A stretch of 64,000 nt of DNA from positions 1-64,000 of the IMG/VR virus record IMGVR_UViG_3300029267_002158, one strand, 5' to 3'. Source of the DNA: a virus. The notes under the pieces are model-generated. The model saw only the letters and a program-made list of their open reading frames with translations. It was not told the DNA's origin and did not search any database. Below, in pieces: positions 5,728 to 36,451 of the stretch; position 1 is the first letter of the stretch; every line of letters starts with the position of its first letter. Both the position numbers and the translations under genes were made by a program.

Positions 5728-5883
5728 TCCAATCCTCCAGTACCAGCCTGATTGCATAATAGTCAAGATTTATAGGTGGGCAAATCGCGGAGCTAATTGG
5801 CAAACAGGCAAAAGTGATAATACATGCTGCCTCGATCAGCTCCGCGATTATACTTGTGGCCTCCTTGACGAATAAGATGTCCC

Positions 5884-6219: not shown

Positions 6220-6223
6220 TTCG

Positions 6224-10047: not shown

Positions 10048-10658
10048 TTCACTGTCTCCAGGAGCCACTTTCTAGTTACCGTCTTGGCGACATCTTCGTC
10101 AACTATATCTCTGTCCACCCAAGAAGCAACAGCCCCCTGGACAAACTGCTTACCCGTAGCGTCGTCAGGAACCTCAGGAGCTTTGACCTGAACCTTATTT
10201 ATTGCTACTAACAGCTCTTTCGGAACAAGCCTGCCCTCGATATAGCTATGAGTAGCGGTCCGGATCTGGACTCGCGCAAACCCAAGCCGCCGGCCAAGCC
10301 ACGTCGAGGTGTCCTCAAGACCAGCATTGATGTGTCCTATCTGATCACGGGTCGTCTTGATTACGAACAGCCCGTGACGCTTGAAGAAAACACCATTCCC
10401 ATTCGTGTCCCGACACACAGCAAACCATTCGTGATTCCACTTTATCAGCTCGATGATTACGTGTGCGAGCGGATACATATTTAGGAGCAACAGTGCTATC
10501 AGGCGAGGGTAGGAGAATTTGTCGATAAGCGCAAAAGTAGTTACTGTGATTATCGTCCCCCACCAGATACCGTCACTTACCTCAGGCAGTATTTCATACC
10601 AGTGGCGACGGGTGGCGTATACAGTTTTGTATCCCAGTGGCGACGGGAATCTTTTCAT
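10044..10658 (-). CDS. PH-domain (bPH2-like) membrane protein
   Basis: 204 residues. Two hydrophobic helices (about 30-45 and 51-70) are followed by a beta-rich domain with FFKRHGLFVIKTTRDQIGHI and a later LGRRLGFARVQIRTATHSYIE, the pattern of bacterial PH-like DUF304/YdbS domains. The 4-base overlap with the FtsK-like gene suggests the two products act together at the membrane. The C-terminal 50 residues are acidic and helical. Confidence 0.6.
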   Translation of the reverse strand: MKRFPSPLGYKTVYATRRHWYEILPEVSDGIWWGTIITVTTFALIDKFSYPRLIALLLLNMYPLAHVIIELIKWNHEWFAVCRDTNGNGVFFKRHGLFVIKTTRDQIGHINAGLEDTSTWLGRRLGFARVQIRTATHSYIEGRLVPKELLVAINKVQVKAPEVPDDATGKQFVQGAVASWVDRDIVDEDVAKTVTRKWLLETVK

Positions 10659-15803: not shown

Positions 15804-17430
15804 GAGTCAGCTAGAAGAACTTAAAAGGTGCAAGGCTGATGTGGTCTATATGGTCAAGAAATATGGATGGCTTCAGCATACGTCACGCGGAGAGATACGC
15901 TGGGAGCCATACGACTACCAGATTGAGATGCTAGAGTCTCTTCAGAATGGCGACAATATCATAACCCTTAAATCGAGGCAGATAGGTTGCTCATGGACAA
16001 CCGCAGCATACTTAATCTGGCTCATTATTTTCAACCCATCCATAAACTGCATTGTTCTTTCACAGAAAGAGCTTTATGCGGTCAAATTCTTGGAAAAGGC
16101 AAAATTCTTTTTCAATCGCCTTCCAAGATTCTTAAAGCCTAACGTTGTCTCTGATTCAAAGACGCAATTTACCGTGCAGTTTAGAGCAAAAAGACCAGAT
16201 GGCGATTACAAGATCGCCAATTCATCTGTTGATTCACTTACCACAACAACAGATACGGGTCGTAGTTTTTCTGCGCGGCTGGTCATTATGGACGAAGCCG
16301 CGTTTTTGCCAAATGGCGAAGACACGTGGAAGGCCGTTAAGCCAACAACGACACACGGCGGCCAGATAGCTGTAATCTCGACACCGAACCGTATAAACTG
16401 GTTTCATACACTGTGGGCAAAGGCCGAGGCTGGAGAATCACTTACCTTTAAGCCCATCATCGCCTATTACAGAGATTGCGGCTTTGACGACGAATGGTTG
16501 GCAAAAGTCACTGATGGAATGTCAGTGACAGACATTCTCCAGGAATACGAATTGCAGTTCCTGACAAGTGGCAATCCATTCTTTGATCTGAACAAACTCG
16601 CCCTTTGCTACTACGATACTGACGAGTTGGGTAAGATTGTTGACGCAGATGGCAAAAGCCTTAATGTCAAGACGTATATCAACTTCACGGGCGTGGACCC
16701 GTCAGAGGGGGCAGGAGACTATCATTCAATTGTATCTCTTAACCAGCACGGGGTGCAATTAGACGCTTGGCATTCTAAAGATACAAGCCTTGAAGATTTC
16801 TCCGGCTACACAATGACACTGCCTGATGGCAGTCGTGTGGAAGTGGAGGGAAGGACCTCTAAATGGCACAGGATGTATCCTGGATATATGGTCATCGAGC
16901 AAAATAACTCCGGTCAGACGGTGTACTCTCGTCATATAACGCCAGACGATGATAGAAGCATCACCATTTCCAGAAAAACAACCGGCGGCACAGCGGGGGC
17001 AGGTTCCAAGATGAGGATTTTAAACCTTCTGAAGTTGGCCGTTGCTGGAAGGCAGATCTACATCACCGACCTATTCACATACCGGTGTATGCAATCATTC
17101 GAGAGCAAACAAGGCGGTCAAAAGGCCGAGGCTGCTGACGGGGCGTATGACGATCCGGTTATGGCGCTTGCTCATTCGTATGCGGAGCTATATAAGTATG
17201 GCGGCTACGTCATAGAGATGCCAGAGAGGACAGTTGGCGGGCAGAGAATGGTGGCTTTGCGGAAAGAGGACGATTTATCCATAGATGAGCTAGCATCAGC
17301 GATACACGTTGATGGTGGCGTCATAGATGGACCTATATTAGATGAAAGCCCAGGTGGTAGGAGATTTGTTGATGAGCGAGATAGGCGTTTGCGCCCGCCC
17401 AGGGTGTCAGAACGAATTGAAAACTGGTAG
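15784..17430 (+). CDS. terL: Terminase large subunit
   Basis: 548 residues, TTG start. N-terminal ATPase with Walker A-like LKSRQIGCSWT (about 62-72), Walker B LVIMDE (166-171) and coupling motif STPN (199-202). C-terminal RNase H-like nuclease with GVDPSEG (Asp305), IEQNNSG (Glu372) and YDDP (about Asp456-457). It powers DNA packaging into the prohead and cuts the genome at start and end. The length matches the family. Confidence 0.92.
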   Translation: MKRRITKSQLEELKRCKADVVYMVKKYGWLQHTSRGEIRWEPYDYQIEMLESLQNGDNIITLKSRQIGCSWTTAAYLIWLIIFNPSINCIVLSQKELYAVKFLEKAKFFFNRLPRFLKPNVVSDSKTQFTVQFRAKRPDGDYKIANSSVDSLTTTTDTGRSFSARLVIMDEAAFLPNGEDTWKAVKPTTTHGGQIAVISTPNRINWFHTLWAKAEAGESLTFKPIIAYYRDCGFDDEWLAKVTDGMSVTDILQEYELQFLTSGNPFFDLNKLALCYYDTDELGKIVDADGKSLNVKTYINFTGVDPSEGAGDYHSIVSLNQHGVQLDAWHSKDTSLEDFSGYTMTLPDGSRVEVEGRTSKWHRMYPGYMVIEQNNSGQTVYSRHITPDDDRSITISRKTTGGTAGAGSKMRILNLLKLAVAGRQIYITDLFTYRCMQSFESKQGGQKAEAADGAYDDPVMALAHSYAELYKYGGYVIEMPERTVGGQRMVALRKEDDLSIDELASAIHVDGGVIDGPILDESPGGRRFVDERDRRLRPPRVSERIENW

Positions 17431-20400
17431 CACATATTGTTCCAGAAAATGCGCGGCTGCTGACAGGGCAAGGGTTAAGTCTTTGCGCCAGAAGTTGTCG
17501 CGTGACGCGATGAAGCTTATACCTGGAGATATTACGACTACAATGGTTGACGCCTTGGGAAACGGAGCTTACCGTGTATTGGAGGAATGGGCTACAACTC
17601 TTGCCGAGAGCAAGGAATTAGCACCTCCGTTGTTGTCATACACGAGTGAGTCAGGCGATTACTCTAATCGTTACGGCTCCATTCAAACAGATCACGCTTT
17701 GTACAGGGCGACGGATCAGTTAGGGTATGACACGATAGATGATATGATGCGTAACGGTCAGGTTGCATTTGGCGTAGAGATGAAACGCTCTTGGTTGCTG
17801 AGCGTGTTCAGGAACTCGCGTTCTTGGGACATAGAGTGCCAAGACGAGGATACAAAGAACATTGTGCGCGCCATGATGAAGCGTGTACTCACCCGCCATG
17901 CCGGAGAGTTTATGGAAGCCATTCCATACGGCAGTTACTTTGGCGAGAAAATATGGGACTTCAAGGAGGCCAGCTATTGGGGAATAGATGGTGTCCAGGA
18001 TGATGAAAAATATTACGGACTAAAATCGATAGAGGCCATTCACCCAAGGTCCATAAACCGCATTGTGTTTGATGATTCCGGACATCACTTTGACGGCTTC
18101 GTGCAGAACCAGGCGTTCGGTGAACAGAAGATTCCTGTTGCCCAGTCACTTATTTTGACGTACAACAAGCATTTCCGCAATTTGTGGGGTACACCAGCGC
18201 TAGATCCGGTGTATCCTTTTTGGTTTTGGTACGAGGTGTGCATGCGCTCCTTCGTGCGATATATGGAGCGCATGGGCACGCCAGTGACAGTGTGTCGCGC
18301 CCCGTCGAGAGGCCAGATTCGCGTCCCTGATGGAGCGCTGATGAAGTCCATGAAGTACGCTTTTCTCGTGGCGGGCAATGTCGCAGAGTCAAATGCAGTT
18401 GCCTTGCCCAGTGATGTCGATCCTGACACTGGACAGAAGCTTTGGGAGCTTGAATACCTCGCTGACGACAAGCGCGGCACGCAGTTCAAGGACGCGCTAG
18501 AACTTCTTGGCACGCTTATTATCAGATCGTTAGTAATAAGCGACAGAGCTATTACCCAGGGCCCAACAGGGAGCTATGCTGCTGCGGCGAAACACTTCGC
18601 CGTGACAATGTTGCACAACGAACATGTTTTGACACAATTCATCAATCAGCTAAATTCATATGTCATACCACAGATTGTCGAGTACAACATCGGGGCGAAT
18701 GCTAAGCCGGCTACTCTTGTCACAGAAGGATTGGACCCGGAGGAGAAAGAGAGGTTATTCAAACTCCTCTCGACGATGGGCAATCAGGCCGGCCAGACCA
18801 CAATGAACTGGATAGACTGGAAGAAGATCTTTGCTGTAGAAAACATTCCAGTTCTTAACCAGGAAGACTACGACGCCCTCAAAGAGGAGAAACAGGCTGC
18901 CGCCGACGAAGCTATGGAGCGGCAACGGAAAACAGGTGGGCAGTTCCCAGAGAACGGAGAGGAAGAAGAGCCGGAAGAAAAGGACGAGTCAATTAGCGAG
19001 AAGGTAGAGCAATCTGCCGACTGGGCTCTAATGCACATCGCAAGCGGAGCTAGATTTCCGGTTGTGTTAACAGCCGAGGGGGCGAATGCTATTTTTGACA
19101 GGCTTGGAAAGAGAAAATTCCAACTCGCTAATCCGTATCATGATCCATTTGGCAGATTCACATCAAAGGCCGGCTCGTCTGTGGCTTCTGGCGCGCAAGC
19201 GATTGCCGATAACACATTCAGGGATCCAAATTGGGTTGCTGCCGCCGCTGTTGTTCATAGCGGCAAGGCCAGAGAGATCATGCGTAGCCCTGAAGAGAAG
19301 GCAAGGATAGAAAAGGAGACGAAGCTCGCCCTTGATGCAGTTCCAGAAGAATTGCGACGCAAGGATCTGCGTGTGAGGCACCACGCAGGCATAGGCACGT
19401 ATGTGAGCGAGGCGGCAAGCATAGAGTCGATGGGCAATACAAACCCGATGGTCGCAATGTCTGCGGGGTACGTAAAACGAACCGGGGATCGCACGATTCA
19501 TCTCTCACCATCGGTTGTGAGGGAGCTCTCCAGTGACAACGAGGTTCAACGCGCCTTTGCCCGCCACGCTATTATTCACGAATCGCTCCATGCTCGCAAG
19601 AGAGAATTTGGCGCAGAGCAAATATTGAAGCGCATCCCGATCGTATCTGGTGTTTATGGCAATCTCTCCACGCCGATTGAGGAGGGATTGACAGACCTAA
19701 TGGCAAGTCAGATTAGCGGCGTGGCTGGTGCGGGGCCATACTCCAAGTACCGTGACAGAATGGCAAAGATTGCTATGTCCGTCTCTGGTAACAACAAAGA
19801 GAGGGCTAATCAATGGATAAAAGATTCACACAAACGGGCAACAGGCCCGATGGATTTGACACGCCAGTTAAACATGGCGGGTTACAAGACAAACCTCGTA
19901 GAGACCATAAAATATCTTAGCGGAGGCAAGGGGTCTCTTGTAGATCAGATTGGTACCGCTAAGGGGTACGGAAACACGTTTACCCGCCCCACCAGGAAAT
20001 ACAAGGGGCAATGGGAAACAGACACAAACCTTAAAAGGTTGGCGACTGGTGCAGCCGAGGCGCTGTCAGCCTCGTATTATAGAAAGGGGATTGCAACTGG
20101 TATTGGCGAAGCGCTAAAGGAGGCGATGAAGACGTGGCGGGAGATGGAAGGTGTGGATTTGGAGTATGAGGAATTTGCCCCTGAGGAGTGGGACTGGGAT
20201 TTGTCTGTCATTGCCTCAGCAGCCGGCAGCGAGATGAGTGACATCATTGCCGATGTGCCAGACGAGTACAAAGACGCGATAGTTACATACTTTGGCCTCG
20301 GCTACGATTTCGTACCTCGTATGCTTGGCGATTTCCCGAAGCAACAAGAGAAGTTGCTTGAGGCGCATTACCTGTTCAACCCATACCATGATAAAGATGG

Positions 20401-22138
20401 CGAGTTTACGTCAAAGAAGGATGCAACTGTAGTTACAAGAACCACGACGAAGCAGACGGCAAAGAAAACAAGCAAGAAGAATGGTAAGGAAGGATTCTTT
20501 CAAAAAGCTTATTCAGCCATGAGTGCGGGGGCGCAAAAAGCATTACTAGCCCCCGCTGAATATATGTCTAGGAAGAGCGGTCTTGGCCCCAGGCTTGCTA
20601 AAATGGGCGTCGAGATAGGGTCTGATATGCTCATAGAGAAACTTGTTGGCGCTGCCGTCCTTGCCAAGGCGTCGGTGGCCGGCGCTGCTTTGACGCAGAT
20701 AGCCGCAACGGCAATCATGGGAGCCGCAATGCCCGCTGCGCTGCCCGCTGTTGGTGGTGTACTGCTTGGCATTGGGGCGTCGTGGGCGATCACGACAGGG
20801 ATTGACTACCTCCAGACAAGGAGTTTGAACGCCTATGTGAACAGATACTCACCAAAGGACGATCAGCACGTTACGCTGACCATGCCCAAGATGGGAAAGT
20901 TCAAGAAGGCGAGAATGCTATTCTCGTTTGCCCCAAAAGCAATTGTCGGGACAGGAAACATAATGGATATGATTAACGGTGGCGAGCTTGCATCAGGCAT
21001 GGGGATGGAGGAATGGGATGCGGTAGTCCTCGAAAGTGACGACAAGCCGCCTAGTGAAACGCAAAAGTTTGTTGCCTCCATATGGCCGCTCGTCAGCCTC
21101 GTGCTTAGTGATGAGAAAACTGACGGTATGAGGTTGCCATACCTGGAAACACTAGACGGGTTTCCAGGCTTTGAGAAGAGCGGGGAATACCTCGTGATGA
21201 ACAAGGCAGGCGCGGAGAAATTCGCAGAGCATTACTCGGAAGCAGATTTCCCTGAGATAGAAAAGGTCTCGTTTGGAAACCCTGATGGCATGTGGAAGAC
21301 ATTGGAAGAAGAAGGGGCGCTGACACCAAAGGGATCAGAAAAGAAACTGGAAGCCTACCAGTTATTTAATCCGTTTCACGACAAAAAGGGACAGTTTGCC
21401 TCCAAGGGATCTAAGGCTATCAGCAAGGTTGGCACAAGATTGTCAAACATGCCTGATAATCTGGATATTGTATCTCATGATAGCAACAAGAGTGTGGAAA
21501 AGGCGCTTGGTGATTTCAGCAAAAATGGCTTGGCCGCCTACGATAACGGAAAGATTCACGTAACCCCCAGGGGAGTAGAGGTATTTGCCAAGAATACAAA
21601 GCTGAGGGATCACGTGTACACTCACGAGGCTGTTCATGGCCGGCTGCGGGCCAATGGCAAGCCAATGGTCGCTAGAAACGTGAAACAAGCGCAGTTCGAG
21701 GAGGGGGCAACGGACTTGATGGCTGCGGCTATCAACGGTTCTCCAAACCTCATAGCGTACAAGGGGTATGCGGCCTCCATCGCCACGATGGCAAGGGAAT
21801 CATCCAAAAATCAGGACGGCGCGTGGCGGTTTGTATCGGAGTCTCATTACAAGAATAGCGATCCTGGCTTCGCCCCTAGTCTGAAGCCTGGAAAATGGGA
21901 GGATGTGGAATGGTTGATGTCAAGTGCGCCACAGAAGCTAGAGGACGTGTCAACGGAGGGTCTTGATGAGTGGAAAAAATCAGAAGAGGCAAAGTGGAGA
22001 CACATCTACAATATTACTGAGGGGGGTCCGGATTCCGAAGAGAGTAATAGAGGAAATGGAGATGGAGCACGGAAAGCTGGTAACGGACACCGGGCTAACG
22101 ATGTGGTTGGAAAGAGTTCTGGCGATAAAGAAAGCTGA
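17372..22138 (+). CDS. Giant portal fusion: DUF935-type portal plus three tagged modules
   Basis: 1588 residues from ATG 17372 (GGAGA upstream). A CX4C...CX3C zinc motif at residues 7-27 precedes a Mu gp29/DUF935-like portal (about 55-515), which forms the DNA entry ring and packaging dock. An acidic linker follows. Three modules each begin with an NPxHDxxGxFxSK tag (residues about 587, 1003 and 1333). Module 1 has HESLH (736-740) with a downstream EEGLTD, a zinc-peptidase pattern. Module 2 has a long Ala/Gly hydrophobic stretch (about 1087-1148). Module 3 has HEAVH (1418-1422) with EEGATD. Portals are usually 400-550 residues, so about 1000 residues are extra. The C-terminal 40 residues look frame-shifted (see 22021-22026). 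Confidence 0.88.
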   Translation: MSEIGVCARPGCQNELKTGSTYCSRKCAAADRARVKSLRQKLSRDAMKLIPGDITTTMVDALGNGAYRVLEEWATTLAESKELAPPLLSYTSESGDYSNRYGSIQTDHALYRATDQLGYDTIDDMMRNGQVAFGVEMKRSWLLSVFRNSRSWDIECQDEDTKNIVRAMMKRVLTRHAGEFMEAIPYGSYFGEKIWDFKEASYWGIDGVQDDEKYYGLKSIEAIHPRSINRIVFDDSGHHFDGFVQNQAFGEQKIPVAQSLILTYNKHFRNLWGTPALDPVYPFWFWYEVCMRSFVRYMERMGTPVTVCRAPSRGQIRVPDGALMKSMKYAFLVAGNVAESNAVALPSDVDPDTGQKLWELEYLADDKRGTQFKDALELLGTLIIRSLVISDRAITQGPTGSYAAAAKHFAVTMLHNEHVLTQFINQLNSYVIPQIVEYNIGANAKPATLVTEGLDPEEKERLFKLLSTMGNQAGQTTMNWIDWKKIFAVENIPVLNQEDYDALKEEKQAAADEAMERQRKTGGQFPENGEEEEPEEKDESISEKVEQSADWALMHIASGARFPVVLTAEGANAIFDRLGKRKFQLANPYHDPFGRFTSKAGSSVASGAQAIADNTFRDPNWVAAAAVVHSGKAREIMRSPEEKARIEKETKLALDAVPEELRRKDLRVRHHAGIGTYVSEAASIESMGNTNPMVAMSAGYVKRTGDRTIHLSPSVVRELSSDNEVQRAFARHAIIHESLHARKREFGAEQILKRIPIVSGVYGNLSTPIEEGLTDLMASQISGVAGAGPYSKYRDRMAKIAMSVSGNNKERANQWIKDSHKRATGPMDLTRQLNMAGYKTNLVETIKYLSGGKGSLVDQIGTAKGYGNTFTRPTRKYKGQWETDTNLKRLATGAAEALSASYYRKGIATGIGEALKEAMKTWREMEGVDLEYEEFAPEEWDWDLSVIASAAGSEMSDIIADVPDEYKDAIVTYFGLGYDFVPRMLGDFPKQQEKLLEAHYLFNPYHDKDGEFTSKKDATVVTRTTTKQTAKKTSKKNGKEGFFQKAYSAMSAGAQKALLAPAEYMSRKSGLGPRLAKMGVEIGSDMLIEKLVGAAVLAKASVAGAALTQIAATAIMGAAMPAALPAVGGVLLGIGASWAITTGIDYLQTRSLNAYVNRYSPKDDQHVTLTMPKMGKFKKARMLFSFAPKAIVGTGNIMDMINGGELASGMGMEEWDAVVLESDDKPPSETQKFVASIWPLVSLVLSDEKTDGMRLPYLETLDGFPGFEKSGEYLVMNKAGAEKFAEHYSEADFPEIEKVSFGNPDGMWKTLEEEGALTPKGSEKKLEAYQLFNPFHDKKGQFASKGSKAISKVGTRLSNMPDNLDIVSHDSNKSVEKALGDFSKNGLAAYDNGKIHVTPRGVEVFAKNTKLRDHVYTHEAVHGRLRANGKPMVARNVKQAQFEEGATDLMAAAINGSPNLIAYKGYAASIATMARESSKNQDGAWRFVSESHYKNSDPGFAPSLKPGKWEDVEWLMSSAPQKLEDVSTEGLDEWKKSEEAKWRHIYNITEGGPDSEESNRGNGDGARKAGNGHRANDVVGKSSGDKES

Positions 22139-22289: not shown

Positions 22290-22877
22290 ATGAACAAAGA
22301 GGGATTTACAAAGGTTCCAGTTGGCTTACGATTAAGCGATGGGCGGACCGAGTATAAACACAGAAGATTTAAAGATGTCCTTGCGTTTCTTCATGACAGA
22401 TACGGCGACAAGTATTTAAAGCTAGAACTTGGGCCGGGCAGGAAACAATCTTTGTTGACGCACCCGTCAATAGGATTGAATCCATCGGCTGACCCGGTGG
22501 CTGATATATTCTGGGATCTTAATAATGGCATTCCGCTACCCGGCGATTGTATCGACGAGATCTACTCGAATCAGACATTGGAGCATATCAAGCGAGAGAA
22601 TTTTATCTTCTTGATGAATGAAATGTGGAGCGTAATGAAGGTTGGCGGTGTCATGGAGCACTGTGTACCGGAGTACACCTCCTCCGCCGCAGTCGGGGAC
22701 CCGACGCACTACAATATGTTTTCACGCGATTCTTTCAGATATTTTTGCATCCGCAACGACGGCACGATGTTTACTGACCGATTTTCTGACTACGGGATAA
22801 CGTGCAGATTCATGATGGAGTCTCAGGAGGTCAGGCCGGGACTTGACATCACTGTCAGAATGGTGAAGCTCAAGTGA
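22290..22877 (+). CDS. SAM-dependent methyltransferase (class I)
   Basis: 195 residues. LKLELGPGRKQ is the SAM-binding motif I; the DIFWDLNNGIPLP and EIYSNQTLEHI segments match motifs II-III of the Methyltransf_11-like families encoded with glycan-synthesis genes. First gene of an eight-gene modification island inserted between portal and head protease. It probably methylates a sugar or small acceptor, but the substrate is unknown. Confidence 0.75.
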   Translation: MNKEGFTKVPVGLRLSDGRTEYKHRRFKDVLAFLHDRYGDKYLKLELGPGRKQSLLTHPSIGLNPSADPVADIFWDLNNGIPLPGDCIDEIYSNQTLEHIKRENFIFLMNEMWSVMKVGGVMEHCVPEYTSSAAVGDPTHYNMFSRDSFRYFCIRNDGTMFTDRFSDYGITCRFMMESQEVRPGLDITVRMVKLK

Positions 22878-23407
22878 GAAAATATTGGAAATGCTTCCTC
22901 TCAACACTAAAGCACAAGTTCTATGTCTTGATTGCTGGCATGTGGCTTGGCGTTCCGCTGTGGCAATTGTTGGCACACGACATTAGCAAGTTTTCCGTTG
23001 CCGAGTTTCCGAGGTATGCAAGATATTATTTTGGGCAAGAAAAGGACAGAGGGGAATGGGCAAAGGCTTGGCACCATCACCAGCGGTTGAATGCACATCA
23101 CCCAGAGTATTGGCTGCTGTCCTGGCGGTTCTGTGGAGGGGTGGGGCAGCCTGTTGCTGATAATGTTGTCGTCCTCCCTATGCCAGAGATGTATGTTCGC
23201 GAGATGGTTGCTGACTGGTTTGCGGCGTCCAAGATTTATACTGGCAGGTGGGACATAGCGACGTGGCTGAACAAGAATGGCCCAAAGATGATAATGCACA
23301 AGGGCACCGTGCGGCTCGTTGGGGATATTATGGTCGAGATGGGATACTACCTTACTGATAACTGCTCCTGGTCATGGATGGCGGGCGAAAGGTTTTTGAG
23401 AAAATGA
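22874..23407 (+). CDS. DUF5662-like protein
   Basis: 177 residues, 4-base overlap with the methyltransferase. Conserved HDISKFS near residue 35, WHHHQRLNAHHPEYW near 66 and MVADWFAAS near 113 are the His/Asp signature of the DUF5662 family common in phages, likely a metal-binding HD-like helical fold. A basic, hydrophobic N-terminus could associate with membrane. Biochemical role unknown. Confidence 0.7.
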   Translation: MRKYWKCFLSTLKHKFYVLIAGMWLGVPLWQLLAHDISKFSVAEFPRYARYYFGQEKDRGEWAKAWHHHQRLNAHHPEYWLLSWRFCGGVGQPVADNVVVLPMPEMYVREMVADWFAASKIYTGRWDIATWLNKNGPKMIMHKGTVRLVGDIMVEMGYYLTDNCSWSWMAGERFLRK

Positions 23408-24003
23408 ATTATCTTATCGAGGAGTTGGTAAGAAGGCAAAACCTTACGGTGAGGGGGCAAGACTGGGATACAAACCACGAGCGTCTTACAAAAAATGTGG
23501 TTGATCAATTTGCTCCTCTTATTCCAAAGGGGAAGGTAGTTGATGTTGGTTGCGGGAAAGGACTTGCGAGGAAGCACTGGGTGCGTCACGGCTTTGATTG
23601 GGTTGGTGTGACAATTGGCCCTGACTGGGAGTATATGAAGCACAAAGAGTGCGTGCGGGGTGATATGCACATCCTGTCAAGAATCGTTGACGCTGATGTT
23701 GTATACGCAAGGCATGTGCTAGAACATTCACCAATGCCGGTTGTGGCTCTGCGTCGGTGGATGGATATATCGACGCGCATTATTGTCGTTGTTCCAAAAC
23801 CAACACCTCGCGCCATAGATGACACAGCGCACTTAAGCGTGTTGCCCAGAGTAAACTGGATTAAGTATTTCAACTTTCTTGGGTTGAGAATTGCGCTACA
23901 ATCAGAAGTGGAGTACAGTAACCCAGCGCCGTGGCCGCAAACCGGTGGCGAGTTCAGATTTCTTCTATCACACAATCAAAAAAAGCTATTTTGCAGGAGG
24001 TAA
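23404..24003 (+). CDS. SAM-dependent methyltransferase
   Basis: 199 residues from ATG 23404 (ATGA overlap). VVDVGCGKGLARKHW is motif I, and YARHVLEHSPMP and IIVVVPKP follow as motifs II and III. Member of the class I fold; no acceptor-specific signature. Same island as the sulfotransferase that follows. Confidence 0.78.
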   Translation: MNYLIEELVRRQNLTVRGQDWDTNHERLTKNVVDQFAPLIPKGKVVDVGCGKGLARKHWVRHGFDWVGVTIGPDWEYMKHKECVRGDMHILSRIVDADVVYARHVLEHSPMPVVALRRWMDISTRIIVVVPKPTPRAIDDTAHLSVLPRVNWIKYFNFLGLRIALQSEVEYSNPAPWPQTGGEFRFLLSHNQKKLFCRR

Positions 24004-24006
24004 GGG

Positions 24007-24795
24007 GTGAGGCCCATTTTCTTTATTGGAAACAAGCGATCAGGCACGTCGCACGTGGTAAGACTACTCAATGCTCATCCGAATGTCCATGTGTGTTACG
24101 AGCAAGACTTAGCATGGATTCTATATCAGTGCGAAAAGGGATGGTGGCCTGATTTGGTGGGGTATAAATATGACACGCCTTATGGAATGTGGGGCGCTTT
24201 GTGGCGATGCAAGAACTATAATCACTTTGGAGGAATAAATATTGCGAATGACAAGCACGAAGCCATCAGGAATGCTTACTTTAAAGCATCCCTGGCATTG
24301 ATGGAGGATTCTCCTTCTGGCAAGTTTCGTGACGCAATAAAGTGGATAGGCGATAAAAAGCCTGTCCAAAACGCAGATCCGGAGGTATTCGATTTCATAC
24401 GAAGGCATTTCCCCGATGCAAAGTTTATACATCTCATTCGCCATGTGGCAGACTTCGCTGAGAGCACCAATTCCAGGATTGCGTGCTACAAGCACGGTCC
24501 AAAATTCTGGTATTATGAAAGAGATCACCTATTCAGAATGTGGGCAATAATTGAGGGGTGGGTCCTGAGAGACAAGGAGCAAGCGCCGGATTGCATAATT
24601 GATGTACGATACGAGGATTTGTGCAGCTCTCCCGTCGAGGAAATGGAAAGGGTGTTCAGTTTTCTCGATCTGGAGATGGATTCGCGCGTTGAAAGGATAG
24701 TCAGCGAGACCACTACCCCCATCCCCAAGTACGATAGATCTGTTTCTGATTTCGGATCTGCGAGAGAGATAATGAGGGCGTACTCCTATGCGTAA
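24007..24795 (+). CDS. PAPS-dependent sulfotransferase
   Basis: 262 residues, GTG start. FFIGNKRSGTSHVVRLLNAHP at the N-terminus contains the 5'-phosphosulfate-binding loop; FIHLIRHVADFAES near residue 140 supplies the Arg and Ser of the 3'-phosphate-binding site. IDVRYEDLCSSP near 200 is the conserved YEDL motif. It transfers sulfate from PAPS to a hydroxyl of a sugar or lipid, so the island probably builds a sulfated glycan. Host-made PAPS would be needed. Confidence 0.82.
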   Translation: MRPIFFIGNKRSGTSHVVRLLNAHPNVHVCYEQDLAWILYQCEKGWWPDLVGYKYDTPYGMWGALWRCKNYNHFGGINIANDKHEAIRNAYFKASLALMEDSPSGKFRDAIKWIGDKKPVQNADPEVFDFIRRHFPDAKFIHLIRHVADFAESTNSRIACYKHGPKFWYYERDHLFRMWAIIEGWVLRDKEQAPDCIIDVRYEDLCSSPVEEMERVFSFLDLEMDSRVERIVSETTTPIPKYDRSVSDFGSAREIMRAYSYA

Positions 24796-25297
24796 GGCGT
24801 CATTTTTATTTTGCAGGGTCTTGTTTACTAAATTCGGCGTTGACCCGGCGGCGGGCAGGGCAATTGATGTTGGCGGGGCGGACAGGATTGTATATCTCAA
24901 AAAGAAGATGCCAAACCCCCTACTGGAGTGCAGTCCAGATCTGGACTTCTTCGACAATGGATTTCTTGGTTCTGATAATCGCGATTTCCTGAATGAGGAT
25001 GACGTTGCTCCCCTGGAGGGCAAATACAACATTGTTTACAGCTTCGACACCTTGGAGCACGTCAAGGACCCGTGGTTGTTTTACAAAAACATGGTTCGTG
25101 TTTCAAAGAAGGGAGGGCATATATTTATAGCAGCGCCATTCAGGCGGCCTTACCATCCGTCCCCTGGTGATTATTGGAGGTTTACGCCGGAGGGGCTTAA
25201 GTTGCTTTTCGAGAAGATGGACAACGTCAAGGTTCTGGCCGCTGAGTGGGACATTGATCTTGTCGGTTCCGTTTTATTAGTCAGGAGGACAGAATGA
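24788..25297 (+). CDS. SAM-dependent methyltransferase
   Basis: 169 residues. AIDVGGADR is motif I, NIVYSFDTLEHVKDP motif II, and the HPSPGDYWRFTPEGL segment is a conserved late motif of glycan-cluster methyltransferases. Overlaps the sulfotransferase and sulfatase-like genes, so all three are translated together. Confidence 0.78.
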   Translation: MRKASFLFCRVLFTKFGVDPAAGRAIDVGGADRIVYLKKKMPNPLLECSPDLDFFDNGFLGSDNRDFLNEDDVAPLEGKYNIVYSFDTLEHVKDPWLFYKNMVRVSKKGGHIFIAAPFRRPYHPSPGDYWRFTPEGLKLLFEKMDNVKVLAAEWDIDLVGSVLLVRRTE

Positions 25298-26334
25298 AAA
25301 GAAATATCTTACTGGTGATCATTGATTGCTTGCGTTTCGACAAAGTCAATGAGGATCTCATGCCGTTTACACGGCGATGGGGAATGGAGAATGTGTGGTT
25401 TAGCAATCACCGGGTTGTTAGCCATTGCACCGACCCATCTATCACAATGATGCTAAGCGGCGTTCATCCTGATGTAATTGGATTGTACTCAATGATGTAC
25501 GAACACCGAGATTACACTATTCCCAATGACATTAAAATGATCTCGGAGGTCGCTCGTGGGTATGGATACTTCACCGGCCTGGTATCTAACCTTGCGAGGT
25601 GGTATAGGCGGGGGCAGAATGTGTACCTTGATTGTCGCGGGTGGGCCGGAAGCAAAATCTTTGACGAATCTGTGCGGCTTGTCAAGAGTTTCAATCTTCC
25701 ATGGTTCCTCATTGTTCACGACGATTCCTGTCACCGTGAATACGAACGCGGCAGCTATGATAACGCTTGCCGCGCAGTGGATACCTATATCAAAAAGCTG
25801 CTCGATTCTGTTGACCAAGAAAACACAGACATCATTATCACGGCGGACCATGGCGAGGGACTGGGGCAGGAGAGCGTGACAGGGAGAAAGATTATCCAGC
25901 ACGGATTTGGCCTCGATCCGTTTCTCACACACGTCCCTTTGCTGGTGAAGAGGGGGGCGGGCGATATGTTTCCCAAGAAATGTGTAATAGACCAGGTGAC
26001 GGACAATATGTATATTTACCAGGCGCTTAGATATAGAATTTGCGGCGCGAATGCCATTCCGGCGTTTGGCAGGCCGGTGTTTCAGGCTGGCGATACCCCG
26101 CCAAACATTCGACATAGGGGCATTGTCCTCCCCGACCAGAAACAGTTCATTATCGAATCGCAGGGCGGAAAGGTGAATGGAAGGTATTATATAGGCCAAT
26201 TCACAGAAGGGGAAAAGCGCAGCGCCGAGGAGATGTTGGCCGGCCACTGTTCCAGACATGGCATTGATTACTGGGCGGAGAGTATGGAGCCGGAGGCGGA
26301 ATCAAGGCTAAGGGGGTTAGGATACTTTGGATAG
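25294..26334 (+). CDS. Sulfatase-family (alkaline phosphatase superfamily) hydrolase
   Basis: 346 residues. N-terminal ILLVIIDCLRFDKV (metal-binding Asp), a CTDPSITMMLSGVHP nucleophile segment in which Thr replaces the usual sulfatase Cys/Ser, ITADHGEGLGQES (Asp-His pair) and a following HGFGLDPFLTHVPLLV (His) give the full metal site. With a T-x-P-S nucleophile it resembles phosphoglycerol or phosphoethanolamine transferases and phosphonate hydrolases as much as sulfatases, and no formylglycine would form. No membrane segment, so it acts in the cytoplasm or virion. Confidence 0.75.
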   Translation: MKRNILLVIIDCLRFDKVNEDLMPFTRRWGMENVWFSNHRVVSHCTDPSITMMLSGVHPDVIGLYSMMYEHRDYTIPNDIKMISEVARGYGYFTGLVSNLARWYRRGQNVYLDCRGWAGSKIFDESVRLVKSFNLPWFLIVHDDSCHREYERGSYDNACRAVDTYIKKLLDSVDQENTDIIITADHGEGLGQESVTGRKIIQHGFGLDPFLTHVPLLVKRGAGDMFPKKCVIDQVTDNMYIYQALRYRICGANAIPAFGRPVFQAGDTPPNIRHRGIVLPDQKQFIIESQGGKVNGRYYIGQFTEGEKRSAEEMLAGHCSRHGIDYWAESMEPEAESRLRGLGYFG

Positions 26335-26452
26335 GATAAACGAGGACAGATTTAGTCTAATTCAAAGCAAGGAACTTGGTTACTGGAAGAACACGCATTG
26401 CGATCCTAGGGGCCGTGGTATCATTACGACAGAAGGTTCATCAGTCACATGA
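26327..26452 (+). pseudogene. Out-of-frame N-terminal fragment of the following methyltransferase
   Basis: Frame from TTG 26327 encodes about 41 residues including KELGYWKNTHCDPRGRG, a typical N-terminus of these methyltransferases. Read one frame back, the bases upstream of ATG 26449 encode YHYDRRFISH, which continues smoothly into the next gene. So one base appears to be missing near 26405-26420 (or a -1 shift occurs). Confidence 0.6.
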
Positions 26453-26937
26453 GGAGGTTTGATACTGTTGTTGATGTCGGGAGTGGCCCTGTCCCGTATT
26501 TCTGCAATCACAACGTAAGGTTCGGGCGAGCGGTTGCCGTAGATCCCCTTGCTGTACCTTATTCCAAGATAGACAAATACCAACCATTCGTCAGCAAGTG
26601 CGAGTACTCGACGGCGAGCGGAACCGTCGAGTTATTAAGCGGCTTTGCTGATGCTGTGTTTTGCATGAATACATTGGACCACTGCCAAGATCCAGCGTTT
26701 GTTCTGGGTGAGCTGAAGAGGATTGCAAGGCCAGTAAGTAAATTGTTTTTTCAGTGCGATGTTGGCAAGAAGCCAGACCACCTGCACCCGCACACCATTG
26801 ATGCAGACTGGGTATCAAGTGTGCTTTTGAAATGGTTTTCTCCTATTGTGAATTATACCTCAAAGAGTTGGAAATTTGATTGCGATGTCTTATGGTTTGT
26901 GGGAGATATGAAAAATGAAAATAGTCCACGTCAGTAA
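26449..26937 (+). CDS. SAM-dependent methyltransferase (N-terminus in another frame)
   Basis: 162 residues from ATG 26449. TVVDVGSGPVPYFC is motif I, AVAVDPLA motif II, and DAVFCMNTLDHCQDP motif III. The missing N-terminal 40 residues lie in the -1 frame just upstream. If the shift is real and not an assembly error, the protein is expressed either truncated or by recoding. Fourth methyltransferase of the island. Confidence 0.72.
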   Translation: MRRFDTVVDVGSGPVPYFCNHNVRFGRAVAVDPLAVPYSKIDKYQPFVSKCEYSTASGTVELLSGFADAVFCMNTLDHCQDPAFVLGELKRIARPVSKLFFQCDVGKKPDHLHPHTIDADWVSSVLLKWFSPIVNYTSKSWKFDCDVLWFVGDMKNENSPRQ

Positions 26938-27865
26938 ACGAAAGAAGCATGACAAAGACGGTTTGCACCTTGGTGGAGTCGAGGCGTTTTCAAGCTACCT
27001 GAAGGAGGTGATTCCTGAAATGGAATTGTTCTCCTGGCTCGATTTCAATGATTGGCTCGCGACCCCGGACATACCAGACTTCGAGAGGGCCTCGATGCTA
27101 AACACTTACCTCTTGGAAGTTGGCGGGATTGACGAAGAAACAATTGTCATAGTCGATGGGTACTGGGGGCTCGGCCTAGAGGGGAAGGTAGCGCGATTAA
27201 TATCCGTTTGTCACGGCAGCTTGTATGGCCGGTTTATTCAGTCCCAGATTTATCCTTGGGGCGGAGTGGTCGATATGGAAGAGGTTGAGGCTCAGCTATA
27301 CATGTTTAAAAACTCAGAGGTAGTAAGTGTATCGTCCGAGTCTCATTTAGAGTTGCTCAAAGCCGGCGTACCAGGGTCAACTGTTATTCGTCACGGCGTA
27401 CCGCTAGACAAGTTCATGCCGTATCAAAAGAAGAGAGATGTGTGGATGCACGCTGCAACATCAGCGCGCAAGGGCGCGGATCTCTTGCATCATATTGCAG
27501 CCGAGGTCGGAGAGGGGTTCAGCATCGAAGCCATGAATGAGCGCAGTGGCATACCAAAGAAAAAGTCTATGAGACTGTCCCAAGCCAAGGCTCTTATTGC
27601 TCCTACAAGGCACGAGGGAAATTCCTATTTGCTCCTCGAAGCACTTGCTAGCGGAACACCGTTGCTGACATATCAAACGGGTCTCGCTTGTGAGATGGAT
27701 GAGAGATGTGGTATTATCACAGACGATTTATCTCCAGCGAACTTTGGGAGGCATATCAGGCATTGGGATGAATACACCTTTGCCCCACGAGAATGGGCAG
27801 AAGAGAATTTCTGTTTTGCAGATTTCGAGAGAGATTGGAGAGATTACCTTGACTATCCTGATTGA
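26915..27865 (+). CDS. Glycosyltransferase, GT4-like (GT-B fold)
   Basis: 316 residues. KIVHVSKRK and HLGGVEAFSSYL at the N-terminus (acceptor half), VIRHGVPLDKF in the middle, and APTRHEGNSYLLLEALASGTPLLTY near residue 230, the nucleotide-sugar-binding Ex7E motif of GT4 enzymes. It adds a sugar to a glycan. Overlaps the preceding and following genes. Confidence 0.82.
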   Translation: MKIVHVSKRKKHDKDGLHLGGVEAFSSYLKEVIPEMELFSWLDFNDWLATPDIPDFERASMLNTYLLEVGGIDEETIVIVDGYWGLGLEGKVARLISVCHGSLYGRFIQSQIYPWGGVVDMEEVEAQLYMFKNSEVVSVSSESHLELLKAGVPGSTVIRHGVPLDKFMPYQKKRDVWMHAATSARKGADLLHHIAAEVGEGFSIEAMNERSGIPKKKSMRLSQAKALIAPTRHEGNSYLLLEALASGTPLLTYQTGLACEMDERCGIITDDLSPANFGRHIRHWDEYTFAPREWAEENFCFADFERDWRDYLDYPD

Positions 27866-31197: not shown

Positions 31198-31235
31198 ACA
31201 GGGCCGCGTGAAACTTGCGCGGCCCTGTTTTTTTT
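31198..31235 (+). terminator. Strong intrinsic terminator between promoter and first head gene
   Basis: 11-bp perfect stem (31198-31208 with 31218-31228) plus one G-U pair, 8-nt loop and T8 (31228-31235). GGAGG of the next gene follows at once. It would end transcripts from the upstream island, and also most from the 31127 promoter after about 70 nt unless antitermination occurs. Confidence 0.85.
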
Positions 31236-31245
31236 GGAGGTTCTT

Positions 31246-32400
31246 ATGCCAGCAGCGTTAGATAGTTGCGTGGAATCACTTTTGACAAAATGGGACAAGG
31301 ACCCGTCCAGCAGGCCAACTCCAAAGAAGGACGAGGAAGGGAAGCCACAGGACGCAAAGTCTCAGGCAACCGCCATTTGCCAGTCTTCGCAAAAGAAAGA
31401 TGAGCCGAAGAAGGAAACCCCGCCGTCCACTTCAAAGAAAGAAGAGCTGGAGTGGAACAACCCCACTATCACCGGAATGGCTCTGACAAACAGGCCGCAT
31501 ATCAAGGGGCTAGATCCTATTTCCTGGATTCAGGAGGGTGGCAAGAAGCTGTTAAAGGTCCCGTTGCTCATTCTGGGGAAGTGGTCTCACCCAACAGGCG
31601 TGTTGAATTTCAGCAAAGAAACCATTGATAGAATGGTAGCCAACTTCAAGGACAGGCTCGTCGGTCACGACATATCAATTGACGCTAAGCATCTGCCAGA
31701 GATTGGGGCAGTCGGGTGGACGGAGAGGTTTGATTCCGAGGTCCGCGCCGACGGAAAAACGCAATTCTTTGCCGTAGCCGAAGCAACCGCCGCCGGAGCA
31801 AAGATTGTTGACGAGAAGCGATACCGTTACGCCTCTCTGGAGTTCCACACGAATTGGGAACACCCTCTTCGGGCAGCTTTGTCAACAGATGAGTTAGCAC
31901 CGTTTACAGAGGAGGCTATTATGCCTAACGAGAACGTCATCAGTCTTGAAGCTCAGTTGGATGAGGCTAACAAGTCTCAGCGCGATCTTCAAGAGGCTTT
32001 GAGGCTGGAGGAGGAAAAGCGCAGCAAGCTGGAGGAGCGGCTTGTCGTGCTGGAGAAGCAGAATTATCGCCAGAGCGTCGATAGCATCTTGCTTAAAGCT
32101 GAGGCGTATCGAGACGAGAAAAACAGGGGGCACAGCAAGACCATTCTTGACTGGGCTCGCGATGTTTTTCTTGAGGAGTCTATTGGCGAGGACGACACAG
32201 CAATAGAGCTGGAAGACAGGATGGATACTGGGCAAGTACGCTCCTATTATCGTCGCGCAATTGCACGCTTGCTGGAAATACTACCTGGCGCGGTTCCGAT
32301 GAGCGCCGGGGTCAGCGACCCGGACAAAAAGCGTTTTCTCTCTGATGACATTGATGAGGAATCCATGGCCGACGCTGTGAAGCAGATGTGGGAAGCATAA
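31246..32400 (+). CDS. Mu I-like head maturation protease with scaffold domain
   Basis: 384 residues from ATG 31246 (GGAGG upstream). A charged N-terminus (about 1-70) precedes the protease (about 75-225) with KVPLLILGKW, ISIDAKHLPEIGAVGW and YASLEFHTNWEHP, matching the phage Mu I protease family. Residues about 245-320 form a coiled coil, the usual scaffold part. It shapes the prohead and then cleaves the scaffold. Confidence 0.82.
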   Translation: MPAALDSCVESLLTKWDKDPSSRPTPKKDEEGKPQDAKSQATAICQSSQKKDEPKKETPPSTSKKEELEWNNPTITGMALTNRPHIKGLDPISWIQEGGKKLLKVPLLILGKWSHPTGVLNFSKETIDRMVANFKDRLVGHDISIDAKHLPEIGAVGWTERFDSEVRADGKTQFFAVAEATAAGAKIVDEKRYRYASLEFHTNWEHPLRAALSTDELAPFTEEAIMPNENVISLEAQLDEANKSQRDLQEALRLEEEKRSKLEERLVVLEKQNYRQSVDSILLKAEAYRDEKNRGHSKTILDWARDVFLEESIGEDDTAIELEDRMDTGQVRSYYRRAIARLLEILPGAVPMSAGVSDPDKKRFLSDDIDEESMADAVKQMWEA

Positions 32401-32410
32401 GGAGGACAAC

Positions 32411-32800
32411 ATGCCTTTCCGAACAGAGCGCACGCACCGTCAGGTGTACGATGTCCTCCGGGACAATCATTTTAGCGTCCACAAGTCACGGGTGTTCGAT
32501 AGCTCGTACATCGCCGCTGACACTTATCAGAATAAGTACTTGTACCCTGGCATGATCCTTGCCAAGGACAGCTCGACGAACAAGTACGTTCCATACAATG
32601 CCGCTGCCAGCTACGGAACCGGCTCCAATACGGCTGTAGGCGTCCTTGTTGATTTTTGGGATATGACCTACGGCGACAAAATCGTCGCGCCGGTTTGGCA
32701 CGCTGCCGTCAGGGAGGATTACTGCTTCGTTTACGGTGGAGCGCTTGGCACTGTGCCCGCTGCGGTAAAAACGGCCCTTGACGATATTGAGTGGGTCTAA
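32411..32800 (+). CDS. Probable head decoration protein
   Basis: 129 residues between protease and major capsid genes, the usual place of a lambda gpD-like decoration protein. KYLYPGMILAKDSSTNKYVPY and a central AVGVLVDFWDMTYGD are typical of this beta-tulip fold. It would bind the expanded capsid at threefold sites. Confidence 0.72.
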   Translation: MPFRTERTHRQVYDVLRDNHFSVHKSRVFDSSYIAADTYQNKYLYPGMILAKDSSTNKYVPYNAAASYGTGSNTAVGVLVDFWDMTYGDKIVAPVWHAAVREDYCFVYGGALGTVPAAVKTALDDIEWV

Positions 32801-32815
32801 GGAGGCAATTGAGAG

Positions 32816-33970
32816 ATGGCAACTTATCCTAATCCGCTTACAACCACGTTTATGGACAAAGCGATCAAAGAACGGCCCACCAAAGAGGCTATCAAGCAGA
32901 GTTACATCGGGCTTAGTATTCTACCAATGAAAGATGTCCCGGACTACGAATTGACCTGGGATATTATCAAGCACCAGAACCATCTTGCCGGCGTGTATTC
33001 TCACACCGGTGTTCCGATTCCTGGTGATGACCCAGACTTCAAGCAAGTAATGGCTGATGTGATCAATATCATGGCCGCGAGGGTTATGGACGATCAGTCA
33101 GTCATGGTGTTGAGGGACCCTGGTGAGCCGTCGCTCCGCAGCAACATCGTAAATTCAGCGAAGCAAAAGGCGATGAAGCAATTAGCCAATAAGATTGCCA
33201 GCGCTGACGATGAGGTAGAGGCCGTTATCGAATACCTCATTATGCAGTCATTGCAGGGTAGCATTACCTGGCCGCCAAAGGACGACGACGGTAACGCGAT
33301 TGCCAATACGCCGGCTTATTGGGGCGACGTGTCATTTACGCTCTCGCTTGGGTTTCGCTCTGCGTACACCCAGAATATCTCCACGCTGGCCGGATGGGAT
33401 GGCAGATCTGGTGGAGGGTACAACTGGAAGCACGCCAACGCCGATCCGATGCTTGACCTTGAGGTTTTGGACGGGTTATTCACAAAGACCTCCGGCCTGA
33501 GTATGGACGGAGCAAAGATAATTATGTCCCGGTCGGTGTTGAGCTATATGGCGACCCGCCCGAACGTGATTAACTGGTTCAAGGGAACTGATTCCGGAAT
33601 CAAGTATATTCCCGTTCACGAGCTAAAGGACTACATCAAGCTCAAAACCGGCTTCAACATCCAGACATACGATGCTAGGTGGACGTATGCTACTCCCACC
33701 AAGAGCGCTTCTGGTCAGACGGAGAACCTTGTACACTTTCTAAAGGAAGGAAAGATGCTGGTTATCCCGAAAGGCGCACTTGGTCGTGACATCGCGTACT
33801 TTGCCACTGCCCCAACGAGTGGCGCGGACGATAGTTACAAGCCTGGCAAGTACACTTGGGCCGAGAAGCTGAAAAAGCCCCCCTGGAAATGGGAGGTTGG
33901 TGTCGGGATCAAGGGTTTCCCGATTCTGAAGTCAGTTCGGGAAATTGGCGTCTTTGATGTTTTCAACTAG
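32816..33970 (+). CDS. Major capsid protein (gpE-like, HK97 fold)
   Basis: 384 residues with GGAGG upstream. Pattern of the gpE-type capsid family: N-terminal PLTTTFMDKAIKERPT, ILPMKDVPDYELTWDII, and the late KMLVIPKGALG and WKWEVGVGIKGFPILK strands. No predicted long delta domain, in line with a separate scaffold. Forms the icosahedral shell. Confidence 0.85.
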   Translation: MATYPNPLTTTFMDKAIKERPTKEAIKQSYIGLSILPMKDVPDYELTWDIIKHQNHLAGVYSHTGVPIPGDDPDFKQVMADVINIMAARVMDDQSVMVLRDPGEPSLRSNIVNSAKQKAMKQLANKIASADDEVEAVIEYLIMQSLQGSITWPPKDDDGNAIANTPAYWGDVSFTLSLGFRSAYTQNISTLAGWDGRSGGGYNWKHANADPMLDLEVLDGLFTKTSGLSMDGAKIIMSRSVLSYMATRPNVINWFKGTDSGIKYIPVHELKDYIKLKTGFNIQTYDARWTYATPTKSASGQTENLVHFLKEGKMLVIPKGALGRDIAYFATAPTSGADDSYKPGKYTWAEKLKKPPWKWEVGVGIKGFPILKSVREIGVFDVFN

Positions 33971-35743: not shown

Positions 35744-36451
35744 ATGCTGCCTAGCGCTGCGATAAAAGAGTACTCTATGATGTGGGGGCGGAGCCTGGCC
35801 GCAGAAGAGCAAGAGAAGTTTATCGCCCTTGGAGAAGCATTGAATAGCGGTGATTACAGCAATGCAGTCACGCTGTTCAACCCGGACCACGAATCTTCAT
35901 CCGGGCGGTTTGCGACGAGCAAAGGAGGCAGTTCGTCTTCTAGCTCAAAGTCTTCAGATAATAGGTCTGAACAGGATAAAATTGACGACGAGTATTCCGC
36001 CAAACTGGATAAAGATCCTGATTTTCAGCGCAGCGTAAAGGCTGCAAAAAGGACCGCGCGCGCCGGCGCTGCAATCGGATTACTTTATGGAATTAGCGCG
36101 TGGAAGCCTTTGTCTGGCGAGAGCTTTGCAACTGGCGTGGTTAAAGCTGCTGGTAGCGCTGCCGTCGGCTACGGGGTAGGATGGGTATCAGGTGCGATTG
36201 TCTCAAACGCCAAGGCCGGCACGCTGGAAGAATATTGCTTTGCAGACGATGGGGCTAAAAAGTGGGCAACAAATCTCCGTAAGTTTTTGGAGATTATGGT
36301 AGAAAACGGCAAGAGCGATCCGGTAGAAATCGGTCCAACTAATGTCGATATGAAAAAGCTAGGCTTCTCAAAATCGGGGAAAAAGGGATGGTCCATTTCC
36401 CAGAAGCGCGCAGGCACGCTCGTCAAAATTCTCATAAAGGCCGGCTTTTAG
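35744..36451 (+). CDS. Tagged hydrophobic-core protein of the cargo family
   Basis: 235 residues. After a 43-residue N-terminal helix it carries a tag FNPDHESSSGRFATSK (nt 35876-35923), the same type as the three tags in the portal fusion, then a Ser-rich linker and two Ala/Gly hydrophobic segments (about residues 106-120 and 132-165). A basic C-terminus follows. A standalone tagged membrane-active module inside the neck/tail genes has no standard structural role; it could be packaged in the head and inserted into the host membrane. Confidence 0.65.
   Translation: MLPSAAIKEYSMMWGRSLAAEEQEKFIALGEALNSGDYSNAVTLFNPDHESSSGRFATSKGGSSSSSSKSSDNRSEQDKIDDEYSAKLDKDPDFQRSVKAAKRTARAGAAIGLLYGISAWKPLSGESFATGVVKAAGSAAVGYGVGWVSGAIVSNAKAGTLEEYCFADDGAKKWATNLRKFLEIMVENGKSDPVEIGPTNVDMKKLGFSKSGKKGWSISQKRAGTLVKILIKAGF

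What the first reader, a model, noticed from the sequence alone, without database searches (positions are those of the whole stretch)
17372..22138. Portal protein fused to three tagged modules: a possible head-borne cargo polyprotein
About 1000 residues are added to a DUF935-type portal. Three tags of the form NPxHDxxGxFxSK (nt 19130, 20378, 21368) each begin a new module: HExxH peptidase, hydrophobic Ala/Gly domain, second HExxH peptidase. Similar NPxxxxxGRF-like segments are known in minor head proteins of Mu- and SPP1-type phages just before toxin or enzyme domains, but several tags in one portal chain are not something I know of. The tags could be protease cleavage or head-targeting signals, releasing two zinc peptidases and a membrane-active domain to enter the cell with the DNA.
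Basis: partly seen in the sequence, partly recalled or inferred. Interest (0 to 1): 0.88.

Follow-up and report, generated by a model that had tools for sequence, protein, structure and literature searches.

The report
Phage portal carrying tagged cargo modules
In this virus the protein ring through which DNA leaves the head has grown a long tail of swappable modules, each starting with the same short tag, and the same tag starts toxin- and enzyme-like domains on head proteins of many unrelated phages, so it may be an address label for protein cargo carried in the head.

Summary
One ORF (start 17372, 1588 aa) joins a Mu-type portal to three modules, each opened by L-x-N-P-[YF]-H-D-x-x-G-x-F-x-S-K. 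Modules 1 and 3 are homologous HExxH…EEGxTD domains; module 2 has one hydrophobic segment. It is not a freak. Related portals in at least eight other IMG/VR contigs carry or adjoin such modules, in different orders (two neighbouring modules are swapped between two phages), fused or as separate genes; one copy has lost its catalytic residues but kept the tag. Before it stand portals, Mu-F head proteins and prohead proteases; after it stand ADP-ribosyltransferases, zeta-type kinases and other effector domains; about a third of the ORFs carry it within 40 residues of the start. Best reading: the tag is a head-cargo signal, like T4's capsid targeting sequence, and the ORF is a portal-tethered relative of phage 'polyvalent proteins'. 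Portal–effector fusions and zincin-rich phage polyproteins are known (Iyer 2017); the tag and its shuffled cassettes were not found in the papers searched. Targeting, cleavage and injection are inferred. The peptidase fold is only weakly supported.

The parts
17372..19129 (+). Portal part (Mu-type, PF06074) with an N-terminal CxxxxC...CxxxC zinc-finger-like stretch and an acidic linker
   Evidence: Pfam PF06074 E=1.9e-20, PHROG portal E=5e-21; 59/49/33/32/29% identity to five related portals; start at 17372 by RBS and by homology
19130..19168 (+). Tag 1 (NPYHDPFGRFTSK)
19130..20377 (+). Module 1: HExxH domain
   Evidence: Homologous to L024a M1 (E=6e-24), to module 3 and to L029 M2; no Pfam, NCBIfam, PHROG or PDB-sequence match; AF2 core confident, fold search weakly zincin-like
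19577..19591 (+). HESLH motif of module 1; IEEGLTD follows near nt 19676
20378..20416 (+). Tag 2 (NPYHDKDGEFTSK)
20378..21367 (+). Module 2: Ala/Gly-rich module with one TM-like segment (about nt 20711-20767)
   Evidence: hydropathy and homology to L030a M2, E=1e-25; no family match
21368..21406 (+). Tag 3 (NPFHDKKGQFASK)
21368..22138 (+). Module 3: second HExxH domain, to the stop codon
   Evidence: 59% identical to L029 M3; alignment A7 has H, E, H, E, E invariant over 10 modules; AF2 pTM 0.68, best folds LTA4 hydrolase/M1 peptidases, not significant
21623..21637 (+). HEAVH motif of module 3; FEEGATD follows near nt 21695
31234..32400 (+). Head maturation protease candidate (Mu I-like), which could process tags
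   Evidence: PF10123 E=1.3e-4 (below Pfam cut-off), phrog_328 E=3e-4
32411..33970 (+). Head decoration protein and major capsid protein
   Evidence: PF02924 E=1.4e-7; phrog_29 E=2e-21
35744..36451 (+). Stand-alone ORF with a fourth, looser tag (nt 35879) then a Ser/Gly linker and a Gly-zipper-like hydrophobic region

Best explanation
The chain is a portal-tethered cargo polyprotein. Portal subunits carry, beyond the crown inside the head, a string of exchangeable modules. Each begins with a short tag that marks what follows as head cargo, comparable in role to T4's capsid targeting sequence, and is probably also where the chain can be cut. The HExxH modules are zincin-like peptidases that either process the chain or act as effectors after delivery with the DNA. 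Shown here: the modular, tag-bounded, shuffled and fused-or-split architecture, and the link of the tag to head proteins on one side and effector domains on the other. Inferred: location inside the head, cutting at or near the tag, ejection and peptidase activity.
For: Same architecture in related portals: L005 and L029 (three tags each), L030 (two tags, one variant tag, then two more in the next gene), L153 (one tag) and L152 (tag-like remnant). Shuffling: L005 M1 = L029 M2 (52% identity) and L005 M2 = L029 M1 (37%), i.e. swapped order; window and L029 portals are 58% identical and their M3 59%, but their M1 and M2 differ in kind. Split state: L024 portal ends where tag 1 would stand; the tagged module is a separate gene with its own RBS overlapping the portal stop, so a module does not need the portal in cis. 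Tag kept when catalysis is lost: L024b M1 has the tag but IAYGMVRGR in place of HExxH. Across 7 modules the tag columns L, N, P, H, D, G, F are invariant. In the wider set, pre-tag parts are portals, MuF or prohead proteases in up to 25 of 40, and post-tag parts include ART (8+2), zeta toxin 5, PBECR1, CdiA_C and ParB-like nuclease. In 58 of 165 ORFs the first tag lies within 40 aa of the start; neighbours of such genes include portal, MuF, protease, terminase and capsid genes. The portal crown lies inside the capsid in the Mu-like siphophage JBD30 (PMC11445458). The T4 CTS is a 10-residue N-terminal signal for loading heads (PMC9026906). Zincin domains are the commonest domains of phage and plasmid polyvalent proteins, often several per chain, with processing or effector roles proposed (PMC5512222).
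Against: No virion proteomics. In L151 the (variant) tag stays on the portal C-terminus while the HExxH domain is a separate, untagged ORF, and Pro-Nvie1's portal bears a tag near its end before a separate Rel/Spo-domain gene, so the tag is not always joined to the cargo. In L152 the tag is degenerate while the HExxH module is kept. Twelve fused copies would be about 1.3 MDa at one vertex, which seems bulky. The AF2 tag region has low confidence and the fold hits are not significant. Pfam's polyvalent-protein peptidase model did not match.
Confidence: 0.58

Rival explanations
1. Autoprocessing polyvalent protein: the tag is only a flexible hinge or cleavage site, and the HExxH modules themselves cut the chain (in the head or in the host) to free portal and effectors; there is no targeting signal.
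For: Iyer 2017 proposes zincin-driven processing of phage polyproteins. Every related portal locus with enough downstream sequence has at least one HExxH module. The tag sits at module borders and is unstructured in the models.
Against: Tags open stand-alone proteins only 5-40 residues from the start, where no hinge is needed, and occur in many chains with no HExxH. The cleavage site of a diverged enzyme would not explain one invariant tag in phages with unrelated portals and proteases.
Confidence: 0.27
2. Structural portal extension: the modules stay uncleaved as part of the portal or internal core (DNA spooling, scaffold interaction, pilot complex), and the peptidase-like domains are structural.
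For: A pseudo-enzyme copy exists (L024b M1); fusions to the portal are the common state in this family.
Against: HExxH and EE are invariant in the ten modules of alignment A7 (which leaves out the dead copy); module identity and order change freely while the portal stays conserved; modules occur as separate genes.
Confidence: 0.13
3. The tag is a DNA recombination point that merely records module swapping and has no protein function.
For: Modules are demonstrably shuffled at tag borders.
Against: The three tags in this gene use different synonymous codons, relatives likewise; tags are also present where there is nothing to swap (near protein starts).
Confidence: 0.02

Closest known systems
Polyvalent proteins of phages and conjugative elements (Iyer et al. 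2017, PMC5512222)
   Same: Multidomain chains with zincin-like HExxH domains, sometimes several, interspersed with other domains; PBECR, 2H and InPase domains reported fused to portal or MuF; proposed packaging in the head and injection
   Different: Our HExxH modules match no Pfam family (including the polyvalent-protein peptidase model); a serial portal chain with three tag-led modules, the tag itself and shuffled tag-bounded cassettes were not found in the passages of that paper that were read
MuF polymorphic toxins (Jamet et al. 2017, PMC5576092)
   Same: Head protein encoded beside the portal carries variable C-terminal toxins, about 20% of them metallopeptidases; the tag follows MuF domains in 7 of 40 cases here
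   Different: The window chain has no MuF domain and no MuF hit was found in the ORFs tested; the carrier is the portal itself
T4 internal proteins and Alt with the capsid targeting sequence (PMC9026906)
   Same: A short sequence loads effector proteins into the prohead; removed by the head protease; cargo is ejected
   Different: Different motif; T4's is strictly N-terminal and removed; here it is internal and repeated, and neither loading nor cleavage was tested
Nitrososphaera provirus Pro-Nvie1 portal (FR725450)
   Same: Portal with NPYHDERGRFAS near its C-terminus, followed by a Rel/Spo-domain gene
   Different: One tag, effector in a separate reading frame, archaeal host

Membership tests
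Mu-type (DUF935) portal protein | PF06074 match above curated cut-off, beside a large terminase | tested here: met
   73.9 bits vs 23.9 cut-off; PF03237 terminase directly upstream
MuF polymorphic toxin | MuF domain (PF04233) at the N-terminal side of the toxin | tested here: not met
   Only Portal_Mu matches in the chain; no MuF in the downstream ORFs tested
Polyvalent protein | Two or more distinct effector-type domains in one chain of an invading element | tested here: met
   Two HExxH domains plus a different second module
Polyvalent protein | Match to the known polyvalent-protein peptidase family in Pfam | tested here: not met
   No Pfam peptidase hit up to E=10 for modules 1 and 3
Polyvalent protein | Packaged in the head and delivered with DNA | not testable with these tools
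   Needs virion proteomics and ejection assays
Gluzincin-type zinc metallopeptidase | HExxH plus downstream Glu (ExxxD) | tested here: met
   H, E, H, E, E invariant in 10 modules; EEGxTD in the window modules
Gluzincin-type zinc metallopeptidase | Zincin fold | tested here: inconclusive
   M3: Foldseek ranks 1-18 are LTA4 hydrolases but best E=0.13; M1: several zincins at E>2
T4-type capsid targeting sequence | Short sequence sufficient to load a protein into the prohead | not testable with these tools
   Position and generality fit; function untested
T4-type capsid targeting sequence | Removed by the head protease | not testable with these tools
   A protease candidate is encoded at 31234-32400

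The most novel reading that the evidence does not exclude
[VIL]-x-K-F-N-P-x-H-D-x-x-G-R-F-[TA]-[ST] is a general head-cargo signal shared by many unrelated tailed viruses, including an archaeal provirus. Any domain placed behind it is taken into the head, either in trans or on a carrier (portal, MuF, protease). The portal chain here is the extreme case, a carrier of several cargo modules that are swapped at the signal.
Probability: 0.4. Interest if true: 0.88.

Novelty: new variant of a known kind. Interest (0 to 1): 0.7.

Why it matters
If the tag is a cargo signal, it would let anyone list candidate injected effectors of phages directly from sequence, most of which now have no annotation. 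It would explain how unrelated toxin-like, kinase and peptidase domains reach the head by one route, and it would make protein loading into phage heads testable with a peptide of about 13 residues. The portal family also offers a natural comparison (fused, split, shuffled, catalytically dead) for asking why a phage would hang peptidases on its DNA gate.

Tried and rejected
Assembly or frame artefact: rejected, since five related portals have the same kind of chain. Chance tags: rejected. DNA-level repeat: rejected by codon differences. Known family for modules: Pfam, PHROGs, NCBIfam, PDB sequences and INPHARED gave nothing for the modules. A first scan with the single full-length protein found no relatives; profiles did. 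Internal translation starts before the tags in the window: only weak RBS-like sites before tag 2, none before tags 1 and 3. Programmed frameshift in L151: an in-frame G-GGA-AAA heptamer exists in the overlap, but there is no stable downstream structure (z 0.1 and 0.9), and a TAATG stop-start overlap explains the second ORF as well; left open. Genome scan: 3 loci, one a chance hit in a non-phage repeat protein (L034), two with tagged effector-like ORFs (L033, L035). INPHARED short-peptide searches found only three records with the tag, but 22-24-residue queries are insensitive. Literature search for the motif strings found no phage paper.
Full report
What is there. The window lies in a 73,811-base IMG/VR record of a tailed phage, with a terminase at 15784, a tape measure protein at 38223, a head protease candidate, a decoration protein and a capsid protein at 31234-33970. 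The ORF in question runs without a stop to 22138. Its start is best placed at 17372, where an AGGAG precedes the ATG and the protein begins MSEIGVCARPGC, as does the relative in L024 (MSEICSRPGC). Residues 119-494 match Mu-type portals (E=1.9e-20). Nothing after about residue 500 matches any Pfam, PHROG or NCBIfam family or PDB sequence convincingly.

Modules. Three tags (NPYHDPFGRFTSK, NPYHDKDGEFTSK, NPFHDKKGQFASK) open three modules. Modules 1 and 3 are homologous without the tag (BLASTP E=3e-9) and share HExxH and EEG-x-TDLMA. Module 2 has one TM-like stretch. AlphaFold models from family alignments are fair in the core (M3: pLDDT 70, pTM 0.68; M1: 62, 0.59). Foldseek against the PDB gives LTA4 hydrolases (M1-family gluzincins) as ranks 1-18 for M3, best E=0.13. 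For M1 it gives deuterolysin, a small HB8 protein, LTA4 hydrolase and ACE among others at E>2. The viral library gives a mixture that includes SprT-like and metalloprotease proteins, none significant. So the peptidase assignment rests mainly on the motif (H, E, H, E, E invariant over 10 modules), with weak fold support.

Relatives. Profile scans of IMG/VR found at least eight other contigs with related portals. L029: portal, then a J-domain-like module, HEILH, HEAIH, each tagged. L005: portal, then HEIIH, a J-domain-like module, HEMTH, each tagged (J domain: Pfam E 1.2e-5 and 1.2e-4, both below the curated cut-off but with an HPD motif). L030: portal, HEFYH, a hydrophobic module like window M2, a variant tag (NSTHDELGRF) with HEATH, and a second gene with two more tagged modules. 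L153: portal, tag, TM-like stretch, HELAH. L152: portal, degenerate tag, HEFAH. L151: portal ending in a variant tag, then a separate HEMLH ORF. L024: portal alone, a separate tagged HELVH gene with its own ribosome-binding site, then a gene with a tagged dead copy and a tagged HEIIH copy. L025 is cut at the tag by the contig end. All-against-all comparison shows the shuffling: L005 M1 matches L029 M2 at 52% and L005 M2 matches L029 M1 at 37%, the reverse order; the window and L029 agree in portal (58%) and M3 (59%) but carry different M1 and M2. In the portal tree the split L024 is sister to the fused window and L029, and fused forms also occur in the deeper lineages, so fusion and fission have both been possible (deep branches unresolved).

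The tag at large. A strict DNA pattern for the tag hit 22 stretches in IMG/VR but 3 in 257 Gb of bacterial and archaeal genomes, where about one is expected by chance from the pattern's information content (my estimate). In all, 177 tagged ORFs with 221 tags were collected from 127 loci, consensus [VIL]-x-K-F-N-P-[YNH]-H-D-x-x-G-R-F-[TA]-[ST]; shuffled or reversed proteins give none. The search pattern fixed N, P, H, D, G and F, so only the flanking preferences (K at -2, F at -1, T/A and S/T after) are independent findings. Of 40 non-redundant pre-tag parts, 15 match portal families (four of these belong to the family described here), 7 MuF and 3 prohead proteases. Of 149 post-tag parts, 8 match ADP-ribosyltransferase exoenzymes, 2 polyvalent-protein ARTs, 5 zeta toxins, and single ones PBECR1, CdiA_C, a ParB-like nuclease, topoisomerase IB, NUDIX and others; most match nothing. 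In 58 of 165 ORFs with a defined start the first tag lies within 40 residues of it. In seven loci with such ORFs the neighbours include portals, MuF, prohead proteases, terminases and capsid proteins. Up to six tags occur in one chain (L127).

Interpretation. Portal crown, MuF and the prohead protease all lie inside the procapsid: the crown is shown inside the capsid of the Mu-like siphophage JBD30 (PMC11445458), and MuF protein gp7 of SPP1 binds the portal (PMC5576092); the place of the protease is general knowledge. The tag thus joins things that are in the head to things that look like effectors, and it also opens small proteins that have no carrier. A hinge or a recombination point would not explain the last group; a loading signal would. 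T4 provides the precedent: a 10-residue capsid targeting sequence (PMC9026906). I therefore favour a head-cargo signal that may double as a processing site. Against this stand L151 and Pro-Nvie1, where a tag is left on the portal and the effector is a separate ORF, and L152, where the tag has decayed. The leading rival is that HExxH domains process the chain, as proposed for polyvalent proteins (PMC5512222). The two are compatible.

Relation to what is known. Iyer and colleagues already described PBECR, 2H and InPase domains fused to portal or MuF and zincin domains as the commonest part of polyvalent proteins. Jamet and colleagues described MuF toxins, a fifth of them metallopeptidases. The window chain is therefore a new variant of a known kind. 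The new parts are the serial, tag-bounded, swappable portal cassettes and the wide use of one short tag, which I did not find in the papers searched (the library lacks most subscription journals and preprints).

Noticed in passing
window 22290-30962: Between portal and head protease lies a cassette of methyltransferases, a sulfotransferase (PF13469 E=8e-24), a sulfatase-like protein and large glycosyltransferases; L024 has a similar run. Likely glycan modification.
   Followed up: partly
window 35744-36451: Fourth, looser tag opening a small protein with a Gly-zipper-like hydrophobic region, behind the capsid genes.
   Followed up: partly
window 17387-17450: CxRPGCxxxLxxGxxYCSxxC zinc-finger-like stretch at the portal N-terminus, also in L024, L029, L025, L151, L152 and L153; unusual for a portal.
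   Followed up: no
L151:11037-11083: In-frame slippery-type heptamer GGGAAAA in the overlap of portal and HExxH ORFs, plus a TAATG stop-start overlap; frameshift fusion possible but unsupported by structure.
   Followed up: partly
L005 M2 and L029 M1: J-domain-like modules (HPD motif) with a hydrophobic stretch in the portal chain: could recruit host DnaK.
   Followed up: partly
L031 (FR725450) 4429-6445: Archaeal provirus portal with the tag near its C-terminus followed by an overlapping Rel/Spo-domain gene.
   Followed up: partly
L127, ORF of 2597 aa: Six tags in one chain; content not studied.
   Followed up: no
L015/L010 (contig 3300037408_000121), L145, L134: Arrays of several neighbouring tagged genes, some chains with up to three tags, apparently an effector island inside the head operon.
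   Followed up: partly
window 8758-10068 (-): FtsK/HerA-like ATPase gene (PF01580 E=1.6e-11) in the left arm.
   Followed up: no
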